Of a DNA stretch of 64,000 bases, positions 25,545 through 43,672 are shown one piece after another (the stretch's first letter is position 1; the number at the start of each line of letters is the position of its first letter). Under the pieces are notes generated by a model. That model worked only from the letters and a program-made list of their open reading frames with translations, was not told the origin of the DNA and made no database searches. The DNA lies in the NCBI RefSeq assembly GCF_017876675.1, contig NZ_JAGIOI010000001.1, forward strand, positions 2,108,001-2,172,000, read 5' to 3'. Source of the DNA: Arthrobacter stackebrandtii. Lineage in GTDB: Bacteria; Actinomycetota; Actinomycetes; Actinomycetales; Micrococcaceae. A program made the position numbers and the translations under genes.

Positions 25545-25559
25545 TTTCACTTGATGGAA
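25545..25559 (-). promoter_or_regulatory. Candidate ureide-regulon operator, hyi operon
   Basis: On the minus strand this reads TTCCATCAAGTGAAA, an inverted-repeat-like site (TTCCA-N5-TGAAA). A second ATTCCAT arm at 25536-25542 makes a longer inverted repeat with ATGGAAT at 25554-25560. Related sites precede four other transcription units of the cluster. Confidence 0.65.
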
Positions 25560-25650
25560 TTTAGTTTCTGCTTTATGAAAAGTCTAGGCAAGGATGTGGA
25601 AGTAGTCAAGGTCACAATCATGGACATCGTGGAACCTGGAAACGGGCACA

Positions 25651-25711
25651 AAAAAGCGCCCGCCGGCGCCTTCGGCACCCGTTCGTCAACGAGGGCGGGC
25701 GAAAGCGCCGG
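25651..25711 (-). terminator. Terminator of the AAA+ ATPase gene
   Basis: On the minus strand, arms of the form GCGCCCGCCGGCGC and GCGCCGGCGGGCGC flank a long loop and end in a six-T run. The last 28 bases, including the T run (25643-25670), are nearly identical to 27186-27213. Confidence 0.75.
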
Positions 25712-25734
25712 CGGGCGCCGGGGCAATGCGGGTC

Positions 25735-27141
25735 CTAGCGGCCGGGGAAGTCCTGGCTGCCGGTGCCCGCGCCGCTGCCGAGAAGGCTGCGGGTGAGGGT
25801 GGAACTGTCATCCATGAGCTGTTGTGCCGCTGCGGCCAGGTGGGCATCTGCGGGAAGTTCCCCCGCCAGTGCGGCCGCCACCACGGCCCGCCGAACCAAT
25901 TCCTTGGCAAGGGACGCCGTGGTGCCGTCCGTCAGGGCTGCCGCAGCCTCAAGGGCCGGGGCGGAGAAGGCCAGGTTGCGGGAGTAGAGCCGCAGCAGTC
26001 CCAGGCGTTCATGCTCGGTGGGCCTGGGGATTTCCACGGCCAGGTCCACCCGGCCGGGCCGCTGGGCCAGTGCCCGCTCGAGCATGTCGACGCGGTTTGT
26101 GGTCAGTACAAAAGCAACGTCGGAATCGTTGTCCAGGCCGTCCATTGCGTCGAGGACCTCGAACAGCAGCGGCTGCGGGCCATGGCCAAAACTTCTGTCT
26201 TCGGCGATGAGGTCGCAATCCTCCAGGACCACGATGGACGGAGCCAGGGCGCGGGCCAGCTTGGCCGCTTCCGTGATCCGGGCCAGGGCGCCGCCGGAAA
26301 GGAGCACGGCCGTGGTGCCGGGACTTTGGCCCAGCAGGTAGCGGACAGTGTGTGTCTTGCCGGTTCCGGGCGGCCCGTAGAGGAGCAGGCCGCGCTTGAG
26401 GTGCTGGCCGTGCGCCTTCAATGCGGGCCCCTGGCGGCCAATCCCCAAGGTGTGGTCTTCGACCCGGTCAAGGACGCCGCCGGGCAGGATGATCTCGCTC
26501 CGGTCCAATTCGGGGCGCCGGATGAACGTGACGCCGCCCATGCCGGGACCGAACTCGCTGATTTGGAGGGAAATGACCTGGCCCTTGAAAACACTTTCGT
26601 GCTCCATCCGGCGGCGCACTTCAGCCAGGAAGGATGCGGTGTCGCCCGGCTCTGCCGCAAGAACCTCCAGGGTGGCGAATTGACGCCCAAAGTTGGGCTT
26701 GGCCTCGCGCTGGAGCACGGCGATTGGCGCACCGCCGTAGCGAAAAAGCCGGAGCCCCAAGGCAACGCTCTGGCGTTGCTCGTCGGGGCCGACGGGCTGG
26801 TTGGTGTAGTCCGGCGGTGCCAGCGGGAAGGCTGCATGCATATGGCCGTACTGCACCATGTCGCTGAGGGACAGGTGGTTGCGTTGCTCGCCGCCCCCGA
26901 TTCCCACGAGGCGGGCGCCGGGATCCCGGTCTGCGATGGACTCGAGCAGGATGTCCAGGTCAACCAGGCGGTGGGCGGGGACCTCTTCCACCACCACCGA
27001 CAGGTTCCTGGACGGTGCGCCCAGATGGTCGGCAAGTGTTTGTAGCAGCTCATCGCCGCCCTCGACAGGATCCACGGCTGCTTGGGCCAGACGGACAAGC
27101 GCGCCAAAATCATTGATGAACGTCCCCATTTTTTCATCCAT
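25735..27141 (-). CDS. AAA+ ATPase of unknown role
   Basis: The 468-residue protein has a long unrecognised N-terminal half (about 1-220) and a classic AAA+ module. Walker A is GPPGTGKT at 256-263, Walker B is IVVLEDCD around 303-310, and an arginine-finger-like stretch LAQRPGRVDLAVEI follows, as in FtsH/proteasome-type AAA domains. No membrane segment or protease domain is present. The start lies 6 bases after a TAGGCT box, so the message is probably leaderless. It interrupts the ureide cluster and lacks the shared operator, so it need not belong to the pathway. A chaperone- or remodelling-like role is only a guess. Confidence 0.82.
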   Translation of the reverse strand: MDEKMGTFINDFGALVRLAQAAVDPVEGGDELLQTLADHLGAPSRNLSVVVEEVPAHRLVDLDILLESIADRDPGARLVGIGGGEQRNHLSLSDMVQYGHMHAAFPLAPPDYTNQPVGPDEQRQSVALGLRLFRYGGAPIAVLQREAKPNFGRQFATLEVLAAEPGDTASFLAEVRRRMEHESVFKGQVISLQISEFGPGMGGVTFIRRPELDRSEIILPGGVLDRVEDHTLGIGRQGPALKAHGQHLKRGLLLYGPPGTGKTHTVRYLLGQSPGTTAVLLSGGALARITEAAKLARALAPSIVVLEDCDLIAEDRSFGHGPQPLLFEVLDAMDGLDNDSDVAFVLTTNRVDMLERALAQRPGRVDLAVEIPRPTEHERLGLLRLYSRNLAFSAPALEAAAALTDGTTASLAKELVRRAVVAAALAGELPADAHLAAAAQQLMDDSSTLTRSLLGSGAGTGSQDFPGR

Positions 27142-27147
27142 GGTGCG

Positions 27148-27153
27148 AGCCTA
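27148..27153 (-). promoter_or_regulatory. -10 box TAGGCT, leaderless AAA+ gene
   Basis: TAGGCT on the minus strand ends 6 bases before the ATG of the AAA+ gene, the same arrangement as at 2170. Confidence 0.55.
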
Positions 27154-27185
27154 GCAGCGCCGTCAATGCCCCCGGCCGCCCGGCC

Positions 27186-27247
27186 CGGGCACAAGAAAGC
27201 GCCCGCCGGCGCCCGCCCCGACGCCGTTGGGCGGGAGGTGAACGCAG
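27186..27247 (-). terminator. Probable terminator after the ureidoglycine aminohydrolase gene
   Basis: The minus strand has GC-rich inverted repeats followed by GCGCTTTCTTG. The 28 bases 27186-27213 match 25643-25670 with one difference, so two terminators share the same 3' half. Confidence 0.6.
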
Positions 27248-27324
27248 GGCGGACGCGAGGCACCCGGCCGGCCCTGCGCCGTCGTAGTGGCGAGAGGCGG
27301 GGCCGGCGGGCGGGGCGGGGTGCT

Positions 27325-28140
27325 CTAGGTGAGGCGGATCTGGCGGTTCATGTCCTTGTAGAGCAGGTAGCGGAACTCGCCGGGGCCGCCGGCATAGCAG
27401 GCCTGGGGGCAGAAGGCGCGCAGCCACATGAAGTCGCCGGCCTCCACCTCCACCCAGTCGTCGTTGAGCAGGTACATGGCCTTGCCCTGAAGGACATACA
27501 GGCCGTGCTCCATGACGTGGGTTTCCGGGAACGGAATGGCGCCGCCGGGCTGGAAGGTGACGATGTTGACCTGCATGTCGTGGGCGAGGTCGCTGGAATC
27601 CGTGAAGCGGGTGGTCTTCCAGGCGCCGTTGGTGTCCGGCATGGCGGTGGGTTCCACCTCGGCATCGCTGGTCACGAAGGACTTCGCCTCGTAGCCTTCG
27701 AGGCGTTCGTAGGCCTTGCGGATCCACTGGAAGGAGACGATGTCATCCGAGACGTTTGCCAGGCCCCACGTTGCGCCGGCGGCAAGGTAGGCGTAGCCGC
27801 CCTCCTCGAGTGCGTGCAGTTCGCCGTCGAGGGTCAGGTTGACCTTGCCCTTGGTGACGAAGACGACGCCCTCGACGCCCTTCTCAAACTCGGCGACGGG
27901 CGCCCCGCCGCCCGGGCCGATCTCAACGATCAGCTGGGAGAACGTGGTGGAGAAGCCTGCGATGGGACGGGCCAGGATCCACGAGCGGGTGTTGGTGAAC
28001 CCGGGAAGCGTGCTCGTGACGATGTCGGTCATGACGCCCTTGGGGATGACCGTGTAGGCCTCCGTGACGATGGCCCGTTCCGTGGTGAGGTGGGTCTGCG
28101 GCGGCAGGCCGCCCTTGGGGTGGTAGTACTTGCCAGTCAT
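27325..28140 (-). CDS. allE: (S)-ureidoglycine aminohydrolase, bicupin
   Basis: AllE (271 residues) converts ureidoglycine to ureidoglycolate and ammonia. Two cupin domains are visible (about 55-120 and 185-255). Family landmarks are GGLPPQTHLTTERA near the start, SQLIVEIGPGGGAP in the first cupin, and FPETHVMEHGLYVLQGKAMYLL plus WLRAFCPQACYAGG in the second, where the metal ligands lie. The length fits the family. It is the last gene of the operon malic enzyme-malate synthase-DUF6986-allE. Its substrate normally comes from allantoate amidohydrolase, which is not in this window. Confidence 0.93.
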   Translation of the reverse strand: MTGKYYHPKGGLPPQTHLTTERAIVTEAYTVIPKGVMTDIVTSTLPGFTNTRSWILARPIAGFSTTFSQLIVEIGPGGGAPVAEFEKGVEGVVFVTKGKVNLTLDGELHALEEGGYAYLAAGATWGLANVSDDIVSFQWIRKAYERLEGYEAKSFVTSDAEVEPTAMPDTNGAWKTTRFTDSSDLAHDMQVNIVTFQPGGAIPFPETHVMEHGLYVLQGKAMYLLNDDWVEVEAGDFMWLRAFCPQACYAGGPGEFRYLLYKDMNRQIRLT

Positions 28141-28152
28141 CCTTGACTCCTT

Positions 28153-29424
28153 CTAGTTCGTTACGGTTTGGGCCAGCCGCGGGTGTGCCAGTGCGGTCAG
28201 GCGGGAAATGGTGAGGCCGGTCAGGGCGGCAACTTCGTCTTCGCCGACGGCGCCGCAGACCACGCCGCGCAGCACGAAGTTGGCCAGTGCGCGGGCCGTT
28301 GCGGGCTCGTCCATGACGGCCCCGGGGGTCTGCTCCACGTAGTTGCGCAGGCGTTCGGCCGACGCCGGCAGCCCCTCGCGGTAGAACGCATAGGCTGCGC
28401 TGAAGCGGCTGGGCAGCTGGGCTGCGTGCATGTCCCAGCCCTGGTAGTAGCCGCGCTCCAGGGAGCGGCGCACCAGGCGGCCGTGCAGCGCCCAGGCCGA
28501 CTCCACGCCGTCGCCCATGGGGATGACGTTGGTGGAGCCGTCGGAGAGGCGGATGCCCGTGCCGGCCACGGCGAGCTGCATGACCTCCTTGGCGAAGTCC
28601 GCCACCGGGTGCTCCATGGACTGGTAGCCGGCGGAGATTTCCAGGGAGGCGCTGTAGTCGTAGGTGCCGTAGTGCAGGCCGCTGATCCGCCCCGGGATTT
28701 CGTGGGCCAGGCGGGCGACGGGGGAGGTGCCGTCGTGGGCCAGGATGAGCTGCGGGGTTTCCACCTGCACCTCAAAGCGGAGCCGGCCGGCGGGCAGCCC
28801 GTGGATCTGCTCGAGGCGGTTGACGGCGAAGTCCATGGCGCGGACCTGGTCCACCGTGGTGACCTTGGGCAGGGTCAGGACGAGGCCGTCCGGCAGCCCG
28901 CCGGTCTCCACCAGGGTGGAAACGAACAGGTCAAGGGTGCGGATGCCGCGGTTGCGGGTGGCGGCCTCGAAGCACTTGAAGCGGATGCCGATGAAGGGCG
29001 GGGCGGTGCCCTGCCCGACGGCGGTGTTCACGGCCCGGGCGGCCGTGACCGCCGCGGCGTCCTCGGCCTCGTCGCCGCGGTCGCCGAAGCCGTCCTCAAA
29101 GTCCAGGCGCAGGTCCTCGATGGGCTCGGCGGCCAGCTTGGCTGCCACGCGCGGCGCCACGGCGGCGGCGAGTTCCGCGTCCTGGCCCAGCAGGGAGCCG
29201 AGGCGTTCGAGTCCGCCGCGCCCCTCTGCCAGGGCCAATGCTTCCCGGCCCCAGTCAGCGGCCAGGGTGGGCGTGAACTTGTCGGCGGGGACGTAGACGG
29301 TGTGGACGGGCTGGCGGCTGCCGTCGTCGCCGGGGTAGTTGCGGGCCAGGAGTTCATCTGTGGGTGCCAGGGCGGCGTCGATGTGCGCCAGGTCGGCGGC
29401 GGAGAGGGAGAGTTTCGCGGCCAT
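28153..29424 (-). CDS. DUF6986 family protein, aldolase/citrate lyase-like
   Basis: The 423-residue protein resembles the HpcH/HpaI aldolase and citrate-lyase-beta superfamily. Acidic metal-site residues are seen in IEDLRLDFEDGFGDRGDE, and further barrel motifs are FEVQVETPQLIL and ISGLHYGTYDYSA. Conserved DMHAAQLPSRF and a basic C-terminal helix follow. Enzymes of this superfamily make or break C-C bonds next to a carboxylate, often with pyruvate, glyoxylate or CoA thioesters. It is located 1 base after malate synthase and 12 bases before allE, so a role in glyoxylate or ureidoglycolate chemistry is likely but unproven. Confidence 0.8.
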   Translation of the reverse strand: MAAKLSLSAADLAHIDAALAPTDELLARNYPGDDGSRQPVHTVYVPADKFTPTLAADWGREALALAEGRGGLERLGSLLGQDAELAAAVAPRVAAKLAAEPIEDLRLDFEDGFGDRGDEAEDAAAVTAARAVNTAVGQGTAPPFIGIRFKCFEAATRNRGIRTLDLFVSTLVETGGLPDGLVLTLPKVTTVDQVRAMDFAVNRLEQIHGLPAGRLRFEVQVETPQLILAHDGTSPVARLAHEIPGRISGLHYGTYDYSASLEISAGYQSMEHPVADFAKEVMQLAVAGTGIRLSDGSTNVIPMGDGVESAWALHGRLVRRSLERGYYQGWDMHAAQLPSRFSAAYAFYREGLPASAERLRNYVEQTPGAVMDEPATARALANFVLRGVVCGAVGEDEVAALTGLTISRLTALAHPRLAQTVTN

Positions 29425-29425
29425 G

Positions 29426-31033
29426 TCAGCCCACCAGTTCGTAGGCGGGGATGGTCAGGAAGTCCGTGTAGTCCTCGGACAGGCAGATCTCGGAGATGAG
29501 GCCGCTGGCGGGTGCGTAGTGCTTGGTGAAGGCTTCCTCGCCCACCTCGCCGCGCAGCCGCTCCGTCTCTTCGGCGAGAATCTGCGTCACGAGCTCGCGG
29601 GTGACGGTGTTTCCGGTGTCGGCGAGCGTGACCTGGTTGTGGATCTGCTGCCAAACCTGGGACCGGGAAATCTCCGCGGTGGCCGCGTCTTCCATGAGGT
29701 TGTGGATGGCCACGGCGCCGTTGCCTGAAATCCAGACGGCGGTGTAGGCCACGGCCACGTAGAGGTTCAGGCGCAGGCCCGCCTCGGTGGCGCTGCCCGC
29801 GGCCGAGGCGATGTCCAGCAGCTGTTCGGCGGTGACGGTGACGTCCGGGCGCTGCTTGTCCAGCTGGTTGGGCTTGTCTCCCAGGACGGCGTCAAAGACC
29901 TCCTGGCAGATCGGCACCAGGTCGGGGTGCGCCACCCAGGAACCGTCGAAGCCGTCGTTGGCCTCGCGGGTCTTGTCGGCGCGGACCTTGTCAAAGGCGG
30001 CGGCCGTGACTTCGGGTTCGCGGCGGTTCGGGATGACCGCGGCCATGCCGCCCATGGCGAAGGCGCCGCGGTGGTGGCAGGTCTTGACCAGCAGCTCGGT
30101 GTAGGCGCGCATGAACGGTGCCGTCATGGCCACCTGGGCGCGGTCCGGCAGGGTGAAGGCCGCACCGGCGTCGCGGAAGTACTTGATGATGCTGAACAGG
30201 TAGTCCCAGCGGCCGGCGTTCAGCCCGGAGGCGTGGTCGCGCAGTTCGTAAAGGATCTCATCCATTTCAAACGCGGCCGGGATGGTCTCGATCAGCACGG
30301 TGGCGCGGATGGTGCCCTGCGGGATGCCGAGGTAGTCCTGGGCGAAGACGAAGATGTCGTTCCAGAGGCGGGCCTCGAGGTGGCTTTCCATCTTGGGGAG
30401 GTAGTAGTACGGCCCCTGGCCGTTGGCGATGAGCGCCTTGGCGGTGTGGAAGAAGTGCAGTCCGAAGTCGGCCAGCGCACCCGAGGTGGGTTCGCCGTCG
30501 AGCAGGATGTGCCGTTCCTCAAGGTGCCAGCCGCGGGGGCGGGCCACCACCACGGCGAGCGGGGCGTCCGTGCGGAGACGGTACTCCTTGCCCTCCGGGG
30601 AGGTGTATTCCAGCGTGCCGAGGGCGGCGTCGCGGAGGTTCAGGACGGCGTCGACCACGTTTTCCCAGAGCGGGGTGCTGGCGTCCTCAAGGTCGGCCAG
30701 CCAGACCTTGGCGCCGGAGTTGAGGGCGTTGATCGCCATTTTGGCGGGGGAGGCGGGGCCTGTCATCTCGACGCGGCGGTCCGTCAGCGCGGCCGGTGCG
30801 GGGGCGACCTTCCAGTCGCCGCTGCGCACGCTTTCGGTCTCGGGGAGGAAGTCAAGCTTCCCGGTTTCGGCCACCTTGGTGCGGCGGGCGGTGCGGGCGG
30901 CCAGGAGGTTCTTGCGGGCCGGGTTGAAGCGCGCGTTCAGCTCCGCCACAAAGTCCAGGGCCTCGGGGGTGAGGATTTCGCCCGCGCGGGGAATGGGGTT
31001 CAGGTCCGTAACGGTGACGGTCTGGTTGCTCAA
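29426..31033 (-). CDS. aceB: Malate synthase A
   Basis: This 535-residue enzyme condenses glyoxylate with acetyl-CoA to malate. The MSA-type signatures are present: [20 protein letters not shown] near residue 110, [27 protein letters not shown] and [13 protein letters not shown] with the catalytic Asp. The length is normal for the A isoform. The start is TTG at 31033, preceded by GAGGAAG, and the TTGA overlaps the stop of the malic enzyme gene, so the two are translationally coupled. There is no isocitrate lyase nearby; glyoxylate must come from ureides. Confidence 0.96.
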
Positions 31034-32436
31034 GACTGCTTCCTCTCTGTGATGGTGCCGGCCGCGGCGGCAGCCACGGCGGCGGCGACGTTGCCGGCCA
31101 CGTGCGGGTCGAAAACGCTGGGGATGATGTAGCTGGCATTCAGTTCTTCGTCGGAGACCCCGTTGGCGATGGCCTCGGCGGCTGCCACCAGCATATTCGG
31201 TGTGATGTCCGACACGCCCGCGTCCAGCAGGCCGCGGAAGAAGCCTGGGAACGCCAGCACATTGTTGATCTGGTTCGGGAAGTCGCTGCGTCCGGTGGCC
31301 ACCACGGCGGCGTGGCGGGCGGCGATGACCGGGTCCACCTCCGGTGTGGGGTTGGCCATGGCGAACACAATTGCCTTCTCCGCCATGGCGGCAACCTGTT
31401 CCTCGCCCAGGACGTTGGGGCCGCTGACGCCGATGAATACATCTGCCCCGGCCATGGCCTCGTGGAGCGTGCCCTCGAAGTTGTCCGGGTTGGTGTTCTC
31501 GGCCAGCCAAGCGCGGTGCTCGTCCGTGTGGACCTCATTGCGGTGGATGGAGCCGTTGCGGCCGCAGGCCACGACATTGGTGGCGCCCTGGGCGATGAGC
31601 AGCTGGATGATGGCGTTGCCGGCCGCGCCGACACCGGCAACCACGATCTTCACATCCGCGATCTTCTTTTCCACGACCTTCAGTGCGTTCGTCAGTGCGG
31701 AGAGGGTCACGATCGCGGTGCCGTGCTGGTCGTCGTGGAAGACCGGGATGTCCAGCTCGTCGCGCAGGCGCTTCTCGATTTCAAAGCACCGCGGTGCGGC
31801 GATGTCCTCAAGGTTGATGCCGCCGTAGACGGGTGCCATGGCCTTGGCAATCATGATGATTTCCTCAGTGTCCTGCGTGTCCAGGCACACCGGCCAGGCG
31901 TCCACGTTGGCAAACTGCTTGAACAGCGCCGCCTTGCCCTCCATGACCGGCAGCGCGGCGGCAGGGCCGATGTTGCCCAGGCCCAGCACGGCAGAGCCGT
32001 CGGTCAGCACGGCAATGGTGTTGCGCTTGACCGTGAGGTTGCGGGCGGCTTCGGGATCTTCGGCAATCGCCATGCAAACGCGTGCGACGCCGGGGGTGTA
32101 GGCCCGCGAAAGGTCGTCACGGTTGCGCAGCGCAACTTTGGGGACGACCTCCAGTTTGCCGCCGAGGTGCATGAGGAAGGTTCGGTCGGACACGTGCAGC
32201 ACCTCGACGCCGTCGAGCGCGTCCAGCGACTCCTTGATGCGTTGTGCGTGGGCGTCGTCGGTGGTGTTGGCCGTGATGTCCACGACGATGCTCTCATGCC
32301 GGGATTCGGTCACGTCCAGGGCGGTGACGGCAGCGCCGGCGGCGCCGACTGCGGCCGCGAGCTCGCTGGTGACCGTGAAGTTGGACGGGGCACTGACGCG
32401 CAGGGTAATCGAGTTGCCGGGACTTGGATTCGCCAT
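31030..32436 (-). CDS. Malic enzyme with N-terminal ACT-like domain
   Basis: The 468-residue enzyme decarboxylates malate to pyruvate with NAD(P)+. Residues 1-90 form an ACT-like regulatory domain. The catalytic part starts with [11 protein letters not shown] (catalytic Tyr) and has GKAALFKQF (catalytic Lys), FHDDQHGTA (metal site) and the nucleotide loop [20 protein letters not shown] is also conserved. It heads the operon with malate synthase, DUF6986 and allE. In that setting it would regenerate pyruvate from the malate formed from glyoxylate. Cofactor preference is not certain from sequence. Confidence 0.95.
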
Positions 32437-32487: not shown

Positions 32488-32502
32488 TTTCGTATTATGG
32501 AT
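32488..32502 (-). promoter_or_regulatory. Candidate ureide-regulon operator, malic-enzyme operon
   Basis: On the minus strand this reads ATCCATAATACGAAA. It overlaps a possible -10 (CATAAT), so a bound regulator would block RNA polymerase. It lies 52 bases ahead of the malic enzyme start and also in the upstream region of the IclR gene. Confidence 0.65.
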
Positions 32503-32646
32503 ATTATTATCTACCTAGTGAAAATTCAAGCCCGGAGCGCAACTTTGTTGCAGCGGCCCTACCGTAGGGTAAGTTGGTAAATTGAAACTAACGTGTCACC
32601 ATGCGGATAACTTGCCGCGGCAACCAGGACCTAGGAGTGGATACCC

Positions 32647-33402
32647 ATGGCGGTAAAAGCAAGCGGCGGCGTGCAGTCCGTGGAACGTGTCTTTGACCTG
32701 CTGGAGCTCATCACGGATGCCGGCGGCAACGTCACCCTCAGTGAGCTCTCCGCCTCCACCGACCTGCCGCTGCCCACCATCCACCGGCTGCTGCGCACGC
32801 TCGTCACGCTGGGGTACATCCGCCAGCTGCCCAGCCGCCGCTACGCCCTGGGGCCGCGCCTGATCCGCCTCGGCGAAGGCGCCACGAAGCAGCTCGGCGC
32901 ACTGGCCCAGCCACAGCTGAAGACGCTCGTGGACGAACTTGGCGAGACGGCCAACATGGCGGTCCTCGACGACGACATGGTCATTTACATTGCACAGGTC
33001 CCGTCCCCGCACTCCATGCGCATGTTCACGGAGGTTGGCCGCCGCGCCCACACGCACGACACCGGCGTGGGCAAGGCCCTCCTGGCCCAGCTGGACGATG
33101 ACACCGTCCGCAGCATCATCGCCCGACAGGGCATGCCCCGCCCCACCAGCTACAGCCTCGGCACGATCGACGAGCTGCTGGCCGACCTTGCCCGCATCCG
33201 GGAGCGCGGCTACTCCATTGACGAACAGGAACAGGAGCTGGGCGTTCGCTGCTTCGCCATGGCCGTGCCCGATTCGCCGACGCCCACCGCCATTTCCGTC
33301 TCCGGGCCCGTCTCCCGCGTGGACTCCGCCTTTGCCGACCGCGCCATTCCAGAACTGCGTCGTGCGGCGAGGGTGATTTCGGGGGAGTTGAACCGGAACT
33401 AG
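32647..33402 (+). CDS. IclR-family transcriptional regulator, candidate regulator of ureide catabolism
   Basis: The 251-residue protein has the N-terminal winged HTH of IclR regulators (about 8-70, SVERVFDLLELI and LPTIHRLLRTLVTLGYI) and the C-terminal effector domain (about 80-245, with HDTGVGKALLAQ and RGYSIDEQEQELGVRCFA). AllR and similar IclR proteins repress allantoin genes with glyoxylate or allantoin as signals. Position in the middle of the cluster, divergent from the malic-enzyme operon, suggests the same role. TAGGAG precedes the ATG by 9 bases. The regulator-operator link is inferred. Confidence 0.9.
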   Translation: MAVKASGGVQSVERVFDLLELITDAGGNVTLSELSASTDLPLPTIHRLLRTLVTLGYIRQLPSRRYALGPRLIRLGEGATKQLGALAQPQLKTLVDELGETANMAVLDDDMVIYIAQVPSPHSMRMFTEVGRRAHTHDTGVGKALLAQLDDDTVRSIIARQGMPRPTSYSLGTIDELLADLARIRERGYSIDEQEQELGVRCFAMAVPDSPTPTAISVSGPVSRVDSAFADRAIPELRRAARVISGELNRN

Positions 33403-33518: not shown

Positions 33519-36260
<2,742 letters not shown>

Positions 36261-36601: not shown

Positions 36602-36616
36602 TTCCACCATACGAAA
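36602..36616 (+). promoter_or_regulatory. Candidate ureide-regulon operator, NCS1 permease
   Basis: This reads TTCCACCATACGAAA. It ends 24 bases before the permease start codon, just upstream of the ribosome site, where bound protein could block transcription. Confidence 0.65.
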
Positions 36617-36640
36617 AAACCAACTTGTTGCGGAGCTATC

Positions 36641-38245
36641 ATGGACGCTACTTCCACAAAAAATATCCACACGGATGAGGCAGGTGCCACCCGCCAAGGA
36701 CGACGGGCCGCCTTGTCTGATCCAAGAAGAGGAACCGCTTTGTCTGAACCAATTGCAGGGGCAACGGTGTCGAAACCGCCTTTTGAAACCCCTGAGGGCT
36801 ACACGCTCAGTGCGAGCCTCTTCAACCAGGACCTCGCCCCGACCAAGATGAAGGGCCGGCGCTGGTCCAGCTACAGCATCTTCACCCTCTGGGCCAACGA
36901 CGTGCACAGCCTGGGCAACTACGCCTTCGCCATCGGATTGTTTGCCCTTGGCCTCGGCGGCTGGCAGATCCTGCTGGCCCTGGGCATCGGCGCGGTCCTG
37001 CTCTTTGGCCTGCTCAACTTCTCCGGGTTCATGGGGTTCCGCACGGGCGTTCCATTCCCCGTCATGAGCCGCATCAGCTTCGGCATCAAGGGCGCGCACA
37101 TCGCCTCGCTGCTGAGGGGAGGGGTGGCCATCGTCTGGTTTGGCGTGCAGACCTTCCTTGCCTCGGTGGTGCTGCGGGTCATGCTGACCGCCCTGGTCCC
37201 GTCCCTGGGGGCGTTGGACCACAACAACATCCTGGGCCTGTCCACGCTGGGCTGGCTGACATTCATCGCGCTTTGGATTGTGCAGGTGGTGATCGTCAGC
37301 TTCGGCATGGACATGATCCGCAAGTACGAGGCCTTTGCCGGTCCCATCATCCTTGTCACCATGGCGGCGATCGCCATCTGGATGTTCACCGAAGCCGGCG
37401 GATCCATCGCCTGGCAGACGGACAACGGCCTGCACGGCGGTGAAATGTGGCGCACCATCTTCGCCGGCGGCGCGCTGTGGGTGGCCATCTACGGCACCTT
37501 TGTCCTGAACTTCTGCGACTTTACCCGCTCCGCCAAGAGCGCCAAGTCGATTGTGCGCGGCAACTTCTGGGGCATCCCCATCAACATGCTGGTGTTCGGC
37601 GCCATTGTGGTTGTCATCTCCGGCGCCCAGTTCAAGATCGACGGCACCATCATCGAAAGCCCGTCGGACATTGTGCAGACCATCCCCAACACCTTCTTCC
37701 TGGTGGCCGCCTGCCTGGCGCTGCTGATCCTCACGATCGCCGTGAACCTCATGGCCAACTTTGTGGCCCCTGTCTACGCGCTCACCAACCTGTTCCCGCG
37801 CCACCTGAACTTCCGCAAGGCAGCCCTCGTCAGTGCCCTGATCGGCCTGGTGATCCTGCCCTGGAACCTCTACAACAACCCCGTGGTCATTGTGTACTTC
37901 CTCGGCGGGCTCGGCGCGCTCCTCGGCCCGCTGTTCGGCGTCATCATGGCCGACTACTGGCTCATCCGCCGCGGCAAGGTCAACGTCCCCCACCTGTACA
38001 CCAACGCCGAAGGCGCGGATTACTACTACAAGAGGGGCGTGAACCCGCGGGCGGCACTGTCCCTGGTACCGGCCTCCGTGGTGGCGATCCTGATCGCCTT
38101 CATCCCGGCGCTGCACGAGGTCTCCTCCTTCTCCTGGTTCTTCGGCGCAGGCATTGCCGCGGTGACGTACTACTTTGTTGCGGACCGCCACGGACGCTTC
38201 CGCGAGGTGTCGGGCGAGCCCATCGCCGTCGACAGCGTCCACTGA
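36641..38245 (+). CDS. NCS1-family nucleobase/allantoin permease
   Basis: The 534-residue protein is an NCS1 cation symporter (Mhp1/PucI/allantoin permease family) with about 12 membrane segments. A hydrophilic N-terminal part of about 60 residues precedes the first segment. The family motif FNQDLAPTKMKGRRWSSYS opens the domain, and later WANDVHSLGNYAFAIGL and LNFCDFTRSAKSAKSI match substrate- and ion-site helices. It probably imports allantoin or a hydantoin. GGAG sits 7 bases before the ATG. A racemase-like gene follows 24 bases downstream in the same direction. Confidence 0.9.
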   Translation: MDATSTKNIHTDEAGATRQGRRAALSDPRRGTALSEPIAGATVSKPPFETPEGYTLSASLFNQDLAPTKMKGRRWSSYSIFTLWANDVHSLGNYAFAIGLFALGLGGWQILLALGIGAVLLFGLLNFSGFMGFRTGVPFPVMSRISFGIKGAHIASLLRGGVAIVWFGVQTFLASVVLRVMLTALVPSLGALDHNNILGLSTLGWLTFIALWIVQVVIVSFGMDMIRKYEAFAGPIILVTMAAIAIWMFTEAGGSIAWQTDNGLHGGEMWRTIFAGGALWVAIYGTFVLNFCDFTRSAKSAKSIVRGNFWGIPINMLVFGAIVVVISGAQFKIDGTIIESPSDIVQTIPNTFFLVAACLALLILTIAVNLMANFVAPVYALTNLFPRHLNFRKAALVSALIGLVILPWNLYNNPVVIVYFLGGLGALLGPLFGVIMADYWLIRRGKVNVPHLYTNAEGADYYYKRGVNPRAALSLVPASVVAILIAFIPALHEVSSFSWFFGAGIAAVTYYFVADRHGRFREVSGEPIAVDSVH

Positions 38246-38269
38246 CCACCACCCCAACGAAAGGCAACC

Positions 38270-39016
38270 ATGCGCATCCTTGTAGTCAATGTGAACACCA
38301 CGGCATCCATGACGGAATCCATTGCCGCCCAGGCCCGTTCCGCGGCATCGGAAGGCACTGAAATCGTGGCGCTGACGCCCCGCTTCGGCGCCGAATCCTG
38401 TGAGGGCAACTTCGAAAGCTACCTGGCCGCCGTCGCGGTCATGGACGCAGTCCAGTCCTACCCCGAACCGTTCGACGCCGTCGTCCAGGCCGGCTACGGC
38501 GAACACGGCCGGGAGGGGCTGCAGGAACTGCTGGACGTGCCCGTCGTGGACATCACCGAGGCGGCAGCCAGCACGGCCATGTTCCTGGGGCACAAGTACT
38601 CGGTGGTCACCACCCTTGACCGGGCCGTGCCGCTGATCGAGGACCGGCTCAAGCTGGCCGGGCTGACCGACCGCTGCGCCTCCGTCCGTGCCAGCGGCAT
38701 GGCCGTGCTGGAGCTCGAGGAGGAGCCGGAGCGTGCCGTTGAGGCCATTGTCCGCGAGGCCGAACTCGCCGTCACCGCCGACAAGGCCGAGGTCATCGTC
38801 CTGGGCTGCGGCGGCATGGCGGGCCTGAATGAGCAGGTCCGCCGGCGCACCGGCGTCCCCGTGGTCGACGGCGTTGCGGCGGCGGTGGCCATTGCCGAAT
38901 CGCTCGTCGGGCTGGGCCTGTCCACGTCCAAGGTGCGCACCTTTGCGCCGCCGCGTCCCAAGGCCTTCAAGGGCTGGCCGGTCCCGGCCGGTGCCGCTGA
39001 GCTGATCGCGCGCTGA
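38270..39016 (+). CDS. Asp/Glu/hydantoin racemase family protein
   Basis: The 248-residue protein has the duplicated alpha/beta fold of the Asp/Glu/hydantoin racemase family. The start ILVVNVNTTASMTESI is typical of allantoin/hydantoin racemases. The second catalytic Cys is present (Cys180 in VIVLGCGGMAG). The first is not: the corresponding stretch reads VVQAGYGEHGREG with Gly75 where a Cys is usual. Two-base racemisation may therefore be altered, and the enzyme may do different chemistry on an allantoin-like substrate. It lies between the NCS1 permease and an SDR gene; GAAAGG precedes the start. Confidence 0.82.
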   Translation: MRILVVNVNTTASMTESIAAQARSAASEGTEIVALTPRFGAESCEGNFESYLAAVAVMDAVQSYPEPFDAVVQAGYGEHGREGLQELLDVPVVDITEAAASTAMFLGHKYSVVTTLDRAVPLIEDRLKLAGLTDRCASVRASGMAVLELEEEPERAVEAIVREAELAVTADKAEVIVLGCGGMAGLNEQVRRRTGVPVVDGVAAAVAIAESLVGLGLSTSKVRTFAPPRPKAFKGWPVPAGAAELIAR

Positions 39017-39122
39017 CGCCGCCCGGGGCGGGGCAGGCAGGGACATCCCCGCCTGCCCCGCCCTTTGGCGTCTCCGCCACACCCAAAGGCGCAACAATGG
39101 AAGAAACCGTGAGGAGCAAGCA

Positions 39123-39884
39123 ATGAGTGAAGTACCAGCAAGCGGCAAGGTCATGGTGGTGACCGGAGCCGGATCCGGAATCGGCCGCGCCGTGGCCCAG
39201 TCCGCCCTGGCCGAAGGCTGGCGCGTGGTCCTGGCCGGCCGCCGTGGCGCGGAGCTGCTGGCCACCGCCGGCGGCCACCCCGGCGCAGTTGCCGTGCCCA
39301 CCGACGTGACGGACGAGGCCGCCGTCGACGCGCTCTTCCGGCGCGCAGTGGAAAGCTCTGGCCGGGTCGACGTGCTCTTCAACAACGCCGGCATGTTCGG
39401 CCCGGCCCAGTCCGTCGATGAAATCTCGCTCGCTGACTGGAACGCCACCGTGGCCGTCAACCTGACCGGCGCCATGCTGTGTGCCGCAGCCGCCGTGCGC
39501 ACCATGAAAAGCCAGCAGCCGCAGGGCGGCCGGATCATCAACAACGGCTCCATCTCCGCCCATTCCCCGCGCCCCAAGTCCACGGCCTACACCGTCACGA
39601 AACACGCCATCACCGGCCTGACCAAGTCCATAGAGCTCGACGGGCGCCCCTTCGGCATCAGCTGCGGGCAGATCGACATCGGCAACACCGCCACCTCCAT
39701 CATGTCCACCCTGGATGTTGCCCGCGGCGCCCTCCAGGCCAACGGCGAACTCCTCGTCGAGCCCACGTTTCCCGTGGAAGAGGCCGCCCGCACCGTCCTG
39801 TTCATGGCGGGGCTGCCCGCCTCGGCCACCATCGGCCAGCTCACCATCACCGCAGCCGGCATGCCGTTTGTGGGGCGCGGCTGA
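39123..39884 (+). CDS. Short-chain dehydrogenase/reductase
   Basis: A classical SDR of 253 residues. The cofactor loop TGAGSGIGRAVA is near residue 15, NNAG near residue 90, and the catalytic Ser and Tyr-X3-Lys are in NGSISAHS and AYTVTKHA. Asn is present in VAVNLTGAM. After the catalytic region the sequence CGQIDIGNTATSI is conserved in a subgroup linked to hydroxy-acid or ureide clusters. The substrate is unknown. GAGGAG lies ahead of the ATG. It is the third gene of the permease operon. Confidence 0.88.
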   Translation: MSEVPASGKVMVVTGAGSGIGRAVAQSALAEGWRVVLAGRRGAELLATAGGHPGAVAVPTDVTDEAAVDALFRRAVESSGRVDVLFNNAGMFGPAQSVDEISLADWNATVAVNLTGAMLCAAAAVRTMKSQQPQGGRIINNGSISAHSPRPKSTAYTVTKHAITGLTKSIELDGRPFGISCGQIDIGNTATSIMSTLDVARGALQANGELLVEPTFPVEEAARTVLFMAGLPASATIGQLTITAAGMPFVGRG

Positions 39885-39905
39885 GGCCTGCGGGCTTCCC
39901 CAAAA

Positions 39906-39964: not shown

Positions 39965-39978
39965 AATGAAAGGAGCCG

Positions 39979-41472
39979 CTAATGCGTGGGCGCATTGCCA
40001 AGCGGGATCTCGCCGGTGACGGGGACCTCGGTGCCGTCGGCCGCGATGAGCCTGCCGTTTTCGCAGCGGTCGCCGTCCTGCAGTGACGCGAGGATTTCCG
40101 CGGTGACCTGGCGGTCCGTGCCGGCGACAAACACCGATGCGTTCTCCGGGTTGCCGCGCTTGAAGTGGTTGAACAGCAGGTTCAGCAGGATCGCCATGAT
40201 GGCGGCGGAGGAGATGCCGGAGTGGAAGATGGTGCCAACCCACGTGGGGAACTGGTCATAGAACGTGGGTGCAGCGATGGGCAGCATGCCGAAACCGATG
40301 GACGTGGCCACGATGATCAGGTTCATGTTGTTGCGGTAGTCCACCTGGGCGAGGGTGCGGATGCCGCTGGCGGCGACCGTGCCGAACAGCACGATCCCGG
40401 CACCGCCGAGGACGGAGAGCGGGACCGAGGCGACCACGCGGCCCAGGATGGGCAGCAGGCCCAGGACCACCAGGATGACGCCGCCGGCGGAGACCACGAA
40501 GCGGCTCTTGATGCCCGTGACGGCCACCAGTCCCACGTTTTGCGCGAAGGCGCTCTGGGTGAAGGAGCCGAAGACGGGGGAGACCAGGCTGGAGGCCATG
40601 TCGGCGCGGAGCCCGGCCGCGATGCGCTTGGAGTCGACCTTCGTGCCGACGATCTCACCGACGGCCAGGATGTCCGCCGTTGTTTCCGTCAGGATCACCA
40701 GCACCACGATCAGCATGGAGATGATGGCGGCGGCGTTGAAGGTGGGCGGGCCCAGGTGGAACGGCATGGGCAGTTCAAAGATGGCGCCCGCGCCCACCTG
40801 GGAGAAATCGGCCTTGCCCATGAACACGGCTGCAATGGTGCCGATGACCATGGCCAGCAGGATGGACAGGCGCGAGATGGTGGCGCTGCCCAGCTTGCTC
40901 AGGACCAGCACGACGGCCAGGGTTCCGGCGGCGAGCAGGATGTTCGAGACGCTGCCGTAGTCGGCGGCCTTCTTGTTCCCGCCCATGGACCAGTTCGCGG
41001 CCACGGGCATGAGCGTCAGTCCGATGGTGGTGATGACGCTGCCGGTGACAACGGGCGGGAAGAACTTCACGATCTTGGAAAACAGCGGCGCGATCAGCAG
41101 GCCGAACGCGGCCGAGACAATGACGGCGCCAAACACCGCCTGGATGCCGCCGCCGCCAACGATGGCCACCATGGTGGCGACGCTGGCAAAGGACACGCCC
41201 TGGACCAGCGGCAGCTGCGAGCCGAAGAACGGCAGGCCCAAAGTCTGCAGCAGGGTGGCCAGCCCGCCCATGAACAGGGCGGCTGTAATGAGGATGCCAA
41301 TGTCGGGGCCGGACAGCCCTGCGGCCTGGCCAACAATGAGGGGGACGGCGACGATGCCGCCGTACATGGTCAATACGTGTTGGAATCCATAGGCGAAACT
41401 TGCGCCGATTCCGAGCTTTTCATCTTCCGGCCTGGTGGGAACTGTGGCCGTTGCCAGTGGTCTCTTGGTCAT
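39979..41472 (-). CDS. NCS2-family urate/xanthine permease
   Basis: The 497-residue protein is a nucleobase-ascorbate transporter (NCS2) family permease. It starts with the family segment FAYGFQHVLTMYGGIVAVPLI and contains the signature QNVGLVAVTGIKSR in the second half, followed by LGLLPILGRVVASVP. About 12-14 membrane segments are seen. It is located downstream of uricase, so urate is the likely substrate. The ATG at 41472 has AGGAGG 6 bases upstream. The 151-base gap to uricase holds an imperfect inverted repeat (AGTGGCAA with TTGGCACT, about 41513-41532). Confidence 0.92.
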   Translation of the reverse strand: MTKRPLATATVPTRPEDEKLGIGASFAYGFQHVLTMYGGIVAVPLIVGQAAGLSGPDIGILITAALFMGGLATLLQTLGLPFFGSQLPLVQGVSFASVATMVAIVGGGGIQAVFGAVIVSAAFGLLIAPLFSKIVKFFPPVVTGSVITTIGLTLMPVAANWSMGGNKKAADYGSVSNILLAAGTLAVVLVLSKLGSATISRLSILLAMVIGTIAAVFMGKADFSQVGAGAIFELPMPFHLGPPTFNAAAIISMLIVVLVILTETTADILAVGEIVGTKVDSKRIAAGLRADMASSLVSPVFGSFTQSAFAQNVGLVAVTGIKSRFVVSAGGVILVVLGLLPILGRVVASVPLSVLGGAGIVLFGTVAASGIRTLAQVDYRNNMNLIIVATSIGFGMLPIAAPTFYDQFPTWVGTIFHSGISSAAIMAILLNLLFNHFKRGNPENASVFVAGTDRQVTAEILASLQDGDRCENGRLIAADGTEVPVTGEIPLGNAPTH

Positions 41473-41623
41473 AGCGGACCTCCTTGTCTGCTTACCCTTG
41501 ATAAGTGGCAACCCGCTTTGGGAGTTGGCACTGTCGGCAGGCGGGGGTTGCCGCCCCCGCCTGCCTTGCTGCTGGTGTGCCCGCACCGGCCCGCCGCGGC
41601 GGGTTTCGTTGCGGTGCCGCGGC

Positions 41624-42532
41624 TCAGCAGAAGCCGGCGATGCCCTCCCAGGCGCGACCGGCGTCGGACGCGTTTTCACGCAGCACCGCAGCCTCGATCA
41701 GGCCGTAGGGGCGGTCCGCGGCGAAGAACACCTCGTTGGGGTTGTCCAGGCCGAACGGCGCCAGGTCAACGACGAAGTGGTGCTTGTTGGGCATGGAGAA
41801 CTTGATCTCGTCAATCTCCGGGTGGGCCTCCAGCACCTTCCTGCCCATGTTGAACATGGTCTGCTGCAGGGCTGTGGAGTAGTTCTCGGTGAAACCTTCC
41901 AGCAGGAGCGCCTTGACGTCGTCGTACGCCTTGTTGAAGTCCAGGCCCTCGACGGCTGCGGGGTTGTAGCGCCAGCGGGCGGCGACGTCGGTGGACATGA
42001 TCCGGTCGTCGGTGGGCGCCAGCGTGGTGTACTTGTCCACCGGGAAGCCCTCAAAACCGGATCCCGTGGACTTCAGGACGGTCAGGCTGTGCAGCCCGGC
42101 GATGAGCTGGGTGGCGGGCCCGTCCTTGACCACGACGGCGGTGCGCACCTCCTGGCCGTTGCGGACAAACGCGTGGTCGTGCGGCTGGCCGTGCGCCTGG
42201 ATGCGGTCCCAGCCGTACTGCTCCGCGGCCCAGCGCCCGCCGTCGACCCAGCTGAACTCGGTGGTGAAGTGCTCGCCGAGGCGGAGCAGGAACTCCTCAG
42301 GGGAACCCACCCCCTCCCGGGCCAGCGCGTAGACGGTGTTCTTCTGGGTGTCCGTGGGGACAACATGTGCGTTGTCGCCGAGGAGGTGGGCGTCGAGAAA
42401 GTCCCCGCGCAGCTGCGAAGTGACGTTGAGGTCCTCGATGGCGTGGCGCGCCGTGTCCCTGGTGATCTTGACGAGGCGCACTTCCGCCTTGCCGAACTGG
42501 TTGGCGCCCAGGATGATGTTGTTCTGGTTCAT
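41624..42532 (-). CDS. Uricase (urate oxidase)
   Basis: This 302-residue cofactor-free oxidase turns urate into 5-hydroxyisourate. The T-fold repeats are seen, with the catalytic stretch VVPTDTQKNTVYALA near residue 58. The second half has STDVAARWRYN and DFNKAYDDVKALLLEGF, and FSMPNKHHFVVDL lies near the C-terminus. The length fits bacterial uricases. The ATG at 42532 overlaps nothing but is 2 bases after the HIU hydrolase stop, and GGAG lies in the overlap, so translation is coupled. Confidence 0.96.
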   Translation of the reverse strand: MNQNNIILGANQFGKAEVRLVKITRDTARHAIEDLNVTSQLRGDFLDAHLLGDNAHVVPTDTQKNTVYALAREGVGSPEEFLLRLGEHFTTEFSWVDGGRWAAEQYGWDRIQAHGQPHDHAFVRNGQEVRTAVVVKDGPATQLIAGLHSLTVLKSTGSGFEGFPVDKYTTLAPTDDRIMSTDVAARWRYNPAAVEGLDFNKAYDDVKALLLEGFTENYSTALQQTMFNMGRKVLEAHPEIDEIKFSMPNKHHFVVDLAPFGLDNPNEVFFAADRPYGLIEAAVLRENASDAGRAWEGIAGFC

Positions 42533-42534
42533 GG

Positions 42535-42876
42535 CTAGCTCCCGCGATACGTTGAAAAGGCGAACGGGCTCAGCAGTACGGGCACGTGGTAGTGGCCCTG
42601 GCCGTCCGCAACAGTGAAGGTGAGTGTGATTTCCGGGAAGAAGGCTTCCGTGGAGGTCGCGGCAAAGTAGGCCGCAGTGTCGAAGCGTAGGCGGTAGTTC
42701 CCGCCGGCCACTTCCTTGGGGCCCAGGTCGTTGACCCGGCCGTCGGCGTCCGTGGTGCCGCTTGCCAGCAGCGACCAGTCCTGCCCGTTGCGGGCGTGCA
42801 GCTCCACGGGGACTCCCGCGGCGGGCCGGCCCAGGGCGGTGTCCAGGACGTGGGTGGTGATGTGGGAGATTCTCAT
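42535..42876 (-). CDS. 5-Hydroxyisourate hydrolase
   Basis: HIU hydrolase (113 residues) opens 5-hydroxyisourate to OHCU. It is transthyretin-like. The start ISHITTHVLDTALGRPAAGVPV and the C-terminal tetrapeptide YRGS are diagnostic of the enzyme as opposed to transthyretin. The start codon overlaps the stop of the OHCU decarboxylase gene (ATGA). Confidence 0.97.
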   Translation of the reverse strand: MRISHITTHVLDTALGRPAAGVPVELHARNGQDWSLLASGTTDADGRVNDLGPKEVAGGNYRLRFDTAAYFAATSTEAFFPEITLTFTVADGQGHYHVPVLLSPFAFSTYRGS

Positions 42877-43370
42877 GGGTCAAGCACTCCTTGGAGTCTC
42901 AGGAGGGCGATCTCACGCAGCTGTTCGGCGACGACGAGGTCCTCCTCTGCGGGGGAATGGTGCAGCCGGGCGTCCAGGGCGGCGAGAATCTCGGCCGGCG
43001 GACGCCCTGCGGCGCGGATCAGGAACACCCGCCCGAACTTGGCCTCGTAGGCCGCATTGCCGCGGGCCAGGGCGGCTGCCGTGGTTTCGTCGGCCGGGTC
43101 GATGGCGCGCTGTTCCTTCCGGGACAGCGCGGCCTCCTCTCCCGATCCGGCAGCGCGCTCGCCGATCCTCGGATGGTGGGCCATGGCGGCGGCGACTTCT
43201 TCAGCGGTGAAGGGATCTGCCGCCGTCCGGGCCCGCTCGAGGATGTGTTCGGCGGAGGCGTACGGCCTGGCTTGGATGATTTCATGAACCCAGCGGTCGA
43301 TGTCGATGCAGGGGCGCAGTTCTGCCGCAAGTGCGGCTTCCGGTGATTCGTTGAATACTTTCAACAGCAT
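42873..43370 (-). CDS. OHCU decarboxylase
   Basis: The 165-residue enzyme decarboxylates OHCU to (S)-allantoin. The motif AHHPRIGERA holds the catalytic His, and FLIRAAGRPPAEILAALDARL is the typical C-terminal helix region. The ATG at 43370 is favoured because AAGGA lies 9 bases upstream and the alternative start at 43445 falls within the operator region. It is the first gene of the operon decarboxylase-HIU hydrolase-uricase-permease, in the order of the reactions reversed. Confidence 0.95.
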   Translation of the reverse strand: MLLKVFNESPEAALAAELRPCIDIDRWVHEIIQARPYASAEHILERARTAADPFTAEEVAAAMAHHPRIGERAAGSGEEAALSRKEQRAIDPADETTAAALARGNAAYEAKFGRVFLIRAAGRPPAEILAALDARLHHSPAEEDLVVAEQLREIALLRLQGVLDP

Positions 43371-43672
43371 GGCAAGTAGGTCCTTGCGATTTGTCTGCTG
43401 GCATCCACGGCGTAGGCTATGCGAAGTGAAAAATGGATTTCGCATCGTGGAACTGTTATTTCAGCGTATGAATAGTGAACCGCATCACATTTCGATTGTC
43501 AACAGGGGTCCGGGATTCCGGTGCCGGCGTCAGGTGCGGGCGCGGTGGGCAATGGCCAATCCCGCCACTCCGGCTGCCGCCCCGGGCGCGCAGCGGCGCC
43601 TCGGCGCGGCCTTCGGTGGATGCCGCGCCGAAGCGCCGTTGAGTTTGGGGTTCGAGTGAGGCTCGTGGAGGG
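43371..43672. other. Intergenic region upstream of the OHCU decarboxylase operon
   Basis: These 302 bases contain the candidate operator and an inverted repeat ATGCGAA/TTCGCAT (43419-43425 with 43439-43445) that overlaps it. The rest, next to bcp, is GC-rich with short GCC/GGC repeats. No gene was seen. Confidence 0.55.
43438..43452 (-). promoter_or_regulatory. Candidate ureide-regulon operator, OHCU decarboxylase operon
   Basis: On the minus strand this reads TTCCACGATGCGAAA, 68 bases ahead of the start codon. It is the closest match to the site in front of the NCS1 permease (13 of 15 bases). Confidence 0.65.

What the first reader, a model, noticed from the sequence alone, without database searches (positions are those of the whole stretch)
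25545..43452. One 15-bp operator-like motif in front of all five ureide-cluster transcription units
Reading each intergenic region gave TTCCATCAAGTGAAA (hyi operon), ATCCATAATACGAAA (malic-enzyme operon), TTCCATCTAGCGAAA (aceE), TTCCACCATACGAAA (NCS1 permease) and TTCCACGATGCGAAA (OHCU decarboxylase operon). All fit TTCCAYNWWRYGAAA with one mismatch at most. The AAA+ gene, which interrupts the cluster, has no such site. An IclR-family gene sits in the middle. The motif suggests a single regulon; regulator and ligand are inferred.
Basis: partly seen in the sequence, partly recalled or inferred. Interest (0 to 1): 0.85.

Follow-up and report, generated by a model that had tools for sequence, protein, structure and literature searches.

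The report
IclR-type operators unite ureide-glyoxylate regulon
A soil actinobacterium carries matching repressor-type binding sites in front of its genes for breaking down urate and allantoin and for burning the resulting glyoxylate, including a spare copy of a pyruvate dehydrogenase gene, so that the whole route can probably be switched on together.

Summary
The five sites are real, correctly placed and far above chance. The exact pattern occurs four times in the 4.43-Mb genome, all in this cluster. A matrix from the window alone finds the site upstream of the same genes in related loci: hyi 35/36, mae 58/60, iclR 77/80, OHCU decarboxylase 24/25; aceE only 4/18; interior genes rarely.

Each 15-mer is an imperfect palindrome of the published IclR type, often paired with a weaker copy exactly 21 bp away. 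At TTGAC promoters the pair follows the -10, a repressor position. The window also holds an iclR-proximal site and a sixth promoter, before a thiol peroxidase gene.

The adjacent IclR-family protein (32647-33402) is the likely regulator; its pocket suggests glyoxylate. The regulon joins ureide catabolism, the glycerate pathway and malate-cycle enzymes. Its aceE is 95% identical to a second copy without the site; in related genomes 8/8 cluster aceE copies carry it and 0/8 others do by the symmetric matrix.

Binding, repression and ligand are inferred. New variant of a known kind (AllR/IclR regulons).

The parts
25545..25559 (-).
   Evidence: upstream of hyi in 35 of 36 related regions
25566..25580 (-). 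P1 partner palindrome (op1), centre 21 bp from op2, directly after the -10
   Evidence: (15.7 bits, symmetric matrix)
25581..25609 (-). P1 promoter: -35 TTGACT, 17 bp, -10 TAGACT
   Evidence: TTGAC at the same distance in 32 of 35 hyi regions
18068..25491 (-). hyi, tartronate semialdehyde reductase, gcl, glycerate kinase, allantoinase, 2-oxoacid dehydrogenase E2: closely spaced, inferred operon read from P1
   Evidence: operon inferred from spacing
32488..32502 (-).
   Evidence: upstream of mae in 58 of 60 regions
32509..32523 (+). P2 partner palindrome, 21 bp away
   Evidence: 11.2 bits, symmetric matrix
32594..32608 (+). iclR-proximal palindrome, probable autoregulatory operator
   Evidence: 9.2 bits; proximal site in 14 of 19 same-genus/order and 59 of 80 other loci (control band 0 of 19 and 11 of 80)
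27325..32436 (-). malic enzyme, malate synthase A, DUF6986 protein, ureidoglycine aminohydrolase: inferred operon from P2
32647..33402 (+). IclR-family regulator, 251 aa
   Evidence: best NCBIfam matches BhcR 188 bits and IclR 159 bits, both below their cut-offs; pocket residues
36450..36464 (-).
   Evidence: same place in 8 of 8 cluster aceE copies of related genomes
33519..36260 (-). aceE, pyruvate dehydrogenase E1 (cluster copy)
   Evidence: 94.9% identical to the second copy
36602..36616 (+).
36641..39884 (+). NCS1 permease, Asp/Glu/hydantoin racemase-family protein, SDR: inferred unit from P4
43438..43452 (-).
   Evidence: 24 of 25 related regions
43459..43473 (-). P5 partner palindrome directly after a -10-like TTCACT
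   Evidence: (6.9 bits)
39979..43370 (-). OHCU decarboxylase, hydroxyisourate hydrolase, urate oxidase, xanthine permease: inferred operon from P5
44154..44168 (-).
   Evidence: (12.8 bits); paired sites before same-genus bcp genes in L131 and L138; but 0 of 19 bcp regions in the 80 loci
43673..44140 (-). Bcp/PrxQ-type thioredoxin-dependent thiol peroxidase

Best explanation
The motif is the operator of the IclR-family protein encoded at 32647-33402. Two dimers (a tetramer) bind two 15-bp palindromes whose centres are 21 bp, two helical turns, apart. At the hyi, OHCU decarboxylase, NCS1 and thiol peroxidase promoters the pair lies just downstream of the -10; at the malic-enzyme promoter it overlaps the -35 and -10. 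Binding would block RNA polymerase (repression). Glyoxylate, the end product of ureide breakdown, most likely binds the C-terminal domain and releases the protein. This would induce together the urate and allantoin genes, the glycerate pathway, the enzymes of the malate cycle (malate synthase, malic enzyme, a second pyruvate dehydrogenase E1, perhaps an E2), a thiol peroxidase, and iclR itself. Shown by computation: sites, pairing, conservation, promoter geometry, pocket residues. Inferred: binding, repression, ligand, operon extents.
For: Window-only matrix on related loci, at least 9 bits: hyi 35/36, mae 58/60, iclR 77/80, OHCU decarboxylase 24/25, NCS1 3/3, against 0.15-9.3 expected from permuted matrices; gcl 1/28, reductase 1/30, AAA+ 0/5. 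Partner at exactly -21 (37% of 175) or +21 bp (27% of 178), at most 2% at other offsets. 157 hits of at least 15 bits in 1.50 Mb against permuted mean 2.9, maximum 13. TTGAC 28-31 bp before op1 in 32 of 35 hyi regions. Operator columns 1.06-1.37 bits, flanks 0.10-0.20. IclR-family consensus and tandem spacing in print. Co-occurrence with the IclR protein. Pocket residues. aceE copy contrast.
Against: No binding or expression data. aceE upstream regions in the 80 loci: only 4 of 18 reach 9 bits; 5 Microbacterium loci lack a convincing aceE site. bcp: 0 of 19 in the 80 loci. P3 has no clear partner and P4 and P6 partners are degenerate. The genome has 27 HTH_IclR-type domain matches, so another protein could bind. 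Seven of 28 fetched same-genus exact matches are not beside cluster genes. The paralogous IclR copy in G021 (L192) has no site upstream. By the window matrix 2 of 8 non-cluster aceE copies reach 9 bits.
Confidence: 0.8

Rival explanations
1. Same operators and same protein, but it acts as an activator, like BhcR of Paracoccus, with glyoxylate modulating it.
For: The best NCBIfam match of the protein is BhcR, and its pocket has lost most of the hydrophobic patch, as in BhcR.
Against: The palindromes lie downstream of the -10 or overlap the core promoter, where an activator rarely works; the BhcR candidate site is upstream of the -35.
Confidence: 0.12
2. A different regulator, such as another IclR paralogue of the genome, binds these sites; the adjacent gene is only a target.
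For: 27 HTH_IclR-type domain matches in the genome; the motif form is shared by many IclR-family proteins.
Against: The site stays upstream of this iclR in 77 of 80 loci, including most of those listed without malic enzyme next door; co-occurrence in the genus.
Confidence: 0.07
3. Same repressor, but the physiological inducer is allantoin or allantoate rather than glyoxylate.
For: Ureide genes are the bulk of the targets; E. coli AllR regulates allantoin and glyoxylate genes.
Against: Residues that bind the oxygens of glyoxylate in IclR are kept: G160 equivalent in 77/80, D212, S239 and S241 equivalents in 80/80 relatives.
Confidence: 0.2
4. The motif is a chance or promoter-like resemblance fitted by eye.
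For: The pattern was written from the five sites; six off-cluster places match with one mismatch.
Against: Conservation, fixed pairing, permuted-matrix control. None of 13 off-cluster places examined has a partner at 21 bp.
Confidence: 0.01

Closest known systems
AllR allantoin/glyoxylate regulons (E. coli AllR; Streptomyces coelicolor AllR)
   Same: IclR-family repressor of allantoin and glyoxylate genes; DNA binding of E. coli AllR falls with glyoxylate (PMC11323563 passages). S. coelicolor AllR controls allantoin pathway genes (title seen in a reference list; paper not held).
   Different: E. coli AllR site KTTGGAAWAWTWTTCCAAC differs; here malic enzyme, a second aceE and a thiol peroxidase are included. 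Whether the S. coelicolor regulon has these could not be checked.
IclR of E. coli (aceBAK repressor)
   Same: Protein family; glyoxylate-binding residues mostly kept; malate synthase among the targets.
   Different: Motif TGGAAATNATTTCCA differs; hydrophobic pyruvate patch largely lost; targets are ureide genes and a malate cycle rather than the glyoxylate shunt operon.
BhcR of Paracoccus denitrificans
   Same: Best NCBIfam match (188 bits, cut-off 350); glyoxylate-related regulator with a pocket lacking the hydrophobic patch.
   Different: BhcR serves the beta-hydroxyaspartate cycle; here the site position points to repression.
Malate cycle of Cupriavidus necator
   Different: There a secondary route for glycolate, with genes highly expressed in both CO2 conditions tested; here the genes are clustered and share operators with ureide genes. 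Flux not tested.

Membership tests
IclR-family operator (group 1, WTT-11-AAW) | Palindrome TTYCRYW3RYGRAA | tested here: met
   Five window sites fit with few departures; matrix of 73 distinct relative 15-mers is palindromic; consensus from PMC8222616
IclR-family operator (group 1, WTT-11-AAW) | Tandem palindromes with centres 18-22 nt apart (in 94 orthologous groups) | tested here: met
   21 bp; P3 lacks a clear partner
IclR-family operator (group 1, WTT-11-AAW) | Bound by an IclR-family protein | not testable with these tools
   Adjacency and co-occurrence only
IclR-family transcription factor | HTH_IclR domain and effector-binding domain | tested here: met
   HTH_IclR 63.8 bits, best of the genome; alignment to IclR effector domain 1td5
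AllR-type ureide/glyoxylate repressor | Targets are allantoin and glyoxylate utilisation genes | tested here: met
   Gene content and site conservation; regulation itself not measured
AllR-type ureide/glyoxylate repressor | Equivalog by curated NCBIfam model (PRK10163 AllR) | tested here: not met
   107 bits against cut-off 406; not filed as AllR
AllR-type ureide/glyoxylate repressor | Represses; released by glyoxylate | not testable with these tools
   Inferred from site position and pocket
[quoted passage not shown]
   E2 annotated by the SucB_Actino model
Malate cycle | Carries glyoxylate flux | not testable with these tools
   needs labelling or mutants

The most novel reading that the evidence does not exclude
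Arthrobacter and its relatives have wired a complete malate (dicarboxylic acid) cycle into ureide catabolism. One glyoxylate-sensing repressor controls uptake, ring opening, the glycerate branch and a dedicated malate synthase, malic enzyme and second pyruvate dehydrogenase E1. That E1 is almost identical to the other copy, so the copies differ chiefly in control; the cell can respire glyoxylate from urate and allantoin while keeping the nitrogen. The conserved DUF6986 protein (malate synthase/CitE-like fold) would supply a missing glyoxylate-releasing lyase.
Probability: 0.4. Interest if true: 0.65.

Novelty: new variant of a known kind. Interest (0 to 1): 0.5.

Why it matters
It turns an eye-read motif into a testable regulon with exact operator geometry, a named regulator and a predicted ligand. 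The matrix can help assign genes in other Micrococcales genomes. It offers a natural pair of nearly identical aceE copies that differ in one operator. Arthrobacter sp. Rue61a grows on allantoin although genes for allantoate conversion were not obvious (PMC3534580 passages); the regulon points to DUF6986 as a candidate for part of the gap.

Tried and rejected
Chance resemblance: rejected by conservation, pairing and permuted matrices. Other regulon members in this genome: the six off-cluster places with one mismatch and seven further exact palindrome hits were scanned; none of the 13 has a partner at 21 bp. Of the six, three lie upstream of genes (solute-binding protein, phosphomethylpyrimidine kinase/TENA protein, DUF349 protein), L035 lies inside a long frame, L040 at the junction of two frames, L038 is unclear. 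They were not added to the regulon. One search found 600 places with up to 1 mismatch to the loose palindrome (300 on each strand, the same places) against 398 for its control and listed only the first ones, so it says little.

The promoter scan found nothing at P5 and a different pair at P2; the P5, P6, P3 and malic-enzyme elements given here were read by eye or from the relatives' consensus. Genome searches for allantoicase (PF03561; no control genome rang, so absence is not shown), ureidoglycolate lyase PF04115 and AllC TIGR03176 found no match.

Literature: ten searches listed no paper on this regulon among the rows shown; 'malate cycle' with 'allantoin' gave 0 papers and 'DUF6986' gave 0. 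The S. coelicolor AllR paper is not held, so this is no proof of absence from print. Papers were seen as passages (PMC8222616, also its section 13; PMC11323563; PMC7486775; PMC3534580; PMC12694930; PMC12772271), none in whole.

A profile of 19 DUF6986 proteins found no PDB sequence at E up to 0.01. The predicted model (mean pLDDT 86.4) matches malate synthases and CitE/CLYBL proteins (best E 3.6e-05; TM-score by query at most 0.48 in the 50 rows listed; many rows with rmsd near 20): a fold resemblance only.

Counts to read with care: mae and iclR upstream regions overlap, so their counts are not independent, and related loci are not independent of each other. Other genes at 9 bits or more: urate oxidase 12/41, malate synthase 11/51, glycerate kinase 8/33, aceE 4/18, allantoinase 3/16, SDR 3/12, xanthine permease 3/31, ureidoglycine aminohydrolase 5/59, DUF6986 3/61; these mix cases where the gene is first in its unit with weak chance hits. 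In one search, 36 of 157 hits were not assigned by the 320-bp rule; 20 of the 36 were inspected, 7 of these lying upstream of urate oxidase, and 8 of the neighbouring frames of other hits gave Pfam names. In one search, 28 of 40 exact same-genus matches had loci: 20 upstream of a regulon gene, 1 at a contig end near bcp, 7 elsewhere. The E2 gene had no tblastn hit in any of the 80 loci, many of which end before its expected place.
Full report
WHAT IS THERE. The window is part of a 4.43-Mb single-contig genome; the closest named IclR relatives are from Arthrobacter and kin. The exact pattern TTCCAYNWWRYGAAA occurs four times in the genome, all four in this cluster; allowing one mismatch gives 11, five in the cluster, against 5 for the reversed pattern.

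GENES. By NCBIfam and Pfam, leftwards from P1: hydroxypyruvate isomerase, tartronate semialdehyde reductase, glyoxylate carboligase, glycerate kinase, allantoinase and a 2-oxoacid dehydrogenase E2 (best model SucB_Actino, 550.8 bits against a cut-off of 423). From P2: malic enzyme, malate synthase A, a DUF6986 protein and ureidoglycine aminohydrolase; divergently, the IclR-family gene (32647-33402). From P3: aceE. From P4: an NCS1 permease (best matches allantoin permease models, below their cut-offs), a racemase-family protein and an SDR. From P5: OHCU decarboxylase, hydroxyisourate hydrolase (read), urate oxidase and xanthine permease. Operon extents are inferred from spacing and strand.

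CONSERVATION TEST. A matrix built only from the five window sites was run on upstream regions in 80 loci around IclR homologues (65-91% identity). At 9 bits or more it hits hyi 35/36, mae 58/60, iclR 77/80, OHCU decarboxylase 24/25 and NCS1 3/3, against 2.8, 7.7, 9.3, 1.8 and 0.15 expected from permuted matrices. Interior or unrelated genes: gcl 1/28, reductase 1/30, DUF6986 3/61, ureidoglycine aminohydrolase 5/59, bcp 0/19, AAA+ 0/5; aceE 4/18. Where gene order changes the site is found at the new first gene, for instance malate synthase next to iclR, and glycerate kinase divergent from OHCU decarboxylase in Brevibacterium. The seven misses among the five main targets are listed. At 15 bits there are 157 hits in 1.50 Mb, against a mean of 2.9 and a maximum of 13 for 50 column-permuted matrices.

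THE UNIT IS A PAIR. Around 178 sites of at least 12 bits, a second site of at least 5 bits lies at exactly -21 bp in 37% of 175 and at +21 bp in 27% of 178, and at no other offset within 40 bp in more than 2%. In the window clear pairs are at P1, P2 and P5, degenerate partners at P4 and P6, and none clear at P3. A comparative study of the IclR family gives the consensus WTTYCRYW3RYGRAAW for one subgroup and tandem sites with centres 18-22 nt apart in 94 orthologous groups (PMC8222616, passages and section 13). The motif fits both.

GEOMETRY. At hyi, TTGAC starts 28-31 bp before the first palindrome in 32 of 35 regions, so the pair begins right after the -10. The window shows the same: TTGACT-17-TAGACT and then the palindrome. 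P4 has TTGACT-17-TAGACT with the strong palindrome further downstream. P5 and P6 show the same layout by eye, although the promoter scan found none at P5. At malic-enzyme promoters the relatives' consensus TTGTAT-17-TAATAT is overlapped by both palindromes (read by eye). In non-redundant sets (25 hyi, 44 mae regions) operator columns hold 1.06-1.37 bits and flanks 0.10-0.20. These positions suit a repressor.

REGULATOR. The site stays with iclR in most listed loci where malic enzyme is not its neighbour, and a second, iclR-proximal site is conserved (14 of 19 and 59 of 80; control band 0 of 19 and 11 of 80). In 22 other genomes of the genus there are 40 exact matches against 5 for the reversed pattern; in 15 genomes outside the genus 0 against 1, as the strict pattern is too narrow there. 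Of the 40, 36 lie in the 16 genomes with the IclR protein (E at most 1e-60), of which 13 have at least one; the 4 in the 6 genomes without it are unpaired and away from cluster genes. This is confounded by presence of the cluster itself, which was not searched for. The genome has 27 HTH_IclR-type domain matches, so adjacency rather than exclusivity supports the assignment.

LIGAND. PMC11323563 (passages with its Table 1) lists IclR residues that bind glyoxylate and pyruvate. Mapped by the alignment, the oxygen-binding set here is G, V, D, S, S (4 of 5 as in IclR), each kept in 77-80 of 80 relatives; the hydrophobic patch that holds the methyl group of pyruvate is S, M, A, V. This favours glyoxylate over pyruvate. 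Allantoin or allantoate as effectors are not excluded.

THE aceE PAIR. The genome has two aceE genes, 94.9% identical in protein over 909 residues and 92.3% in DNA. The copy outside the cluster has no site within 250 bp (best 2.9 bits by the window matrix, 4.0 by the symmetric one). In related genomes of the genus, 8 of 8 aceE copies beside cluster genes have a site 135-166 bp upstream (11.4-22.4 bits by the window matrix, 13.7-21.6 by the symmetric one). Of 8 other copies none reaches 8 bits by the symmetric matrix; by the window matrix two reach 9 (10.9 and 11.8 bits, poor palindromes at other distances). In the 80 loci, 4 of 18 aceE regions reach 9 bits: in 8 Brevibacterium loci aceE follows urate oxidase closely and would be read from the OHCU decarboxylase promoter, and in 5 Microbacterium loci no convincing site was found. 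The second malate synthase of the genome (59% identical) lies beside an isocitrate lyase-like frame (my reading of the translation) and has no strong site in the locus fetched. So the cluster carries its own malate synthase and pyruvate dehydrogenase E1 next to malic enzyme, the set that forms the malate cycle shown genetically in Cupriavidus necator (PMC7486775 passages). Flux here is not shown.

VERDICT. The regulon is of a known kind (AllR/IclR). What is unusual is its breadth: ureide catabolism, both glyoxylate branches, a second E1 and a peroxidase under one operator type. Binding, repression and ligand remain to be shown at the bench.

Noticed in passing
window 28153-29424 (-): DUF6986 protein conserved in the operon (found in 61 upstream regions). 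AlphaFold model resembles malate synthases and CitE/CLYBL. The genome has no PF04115 ureidoglycolate lyase or AllC match, so it is a candidate for a missing glyoxylate-releasing lyase.
   Followed up: partly
window 33519-36260 and C1:3386267-3388915 of the genome: The two aceE copies are 100% identical in some 150-bp blocks near both ends and 82-87% in some blocks in the middle, which suggests gene conversion or uneven divergence.
   Followed up: no
window 43474-43489 (-): CRP/GlxR-like palindrome TGTGATGCGGTTCACT between the -35 and -10 of P5; similar ones in 3 of 25 related OHCU decarboxylase regions against 0.04 expected from shuffles, and in L147.
   Followed up: partly
window 25735-27141 (-): AAA+ ATPase gene between hyi and the ureidoglycine aminohydrolase gene; next to hyi in the close relatives L041, L129 and L140 (fragmentary in L042), but not found there in L043-L046.
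   Followed up: partly
L042:12417, L047:16855, L116:10832, L087:7891, L096:1312, L074:19935, L083:19731: Strong sites in relatives beside other genes: cytidine/guanine-type deaminase and amidohydrolase (L042, L047), xanthine dehydrogenase-like (L116), lactate permease family (L087; L096 has a frame of the same length, not searched), HpcH/HpaI aldolase (L074, L083). The regulon may reach further up purine catabolism.
   Followed up: partly
L148 (same-genus genome G003): An exact site with a good partner at 21 bp but no cluster gene nearby; an unidentified possible regulon member.
   Followed up: no
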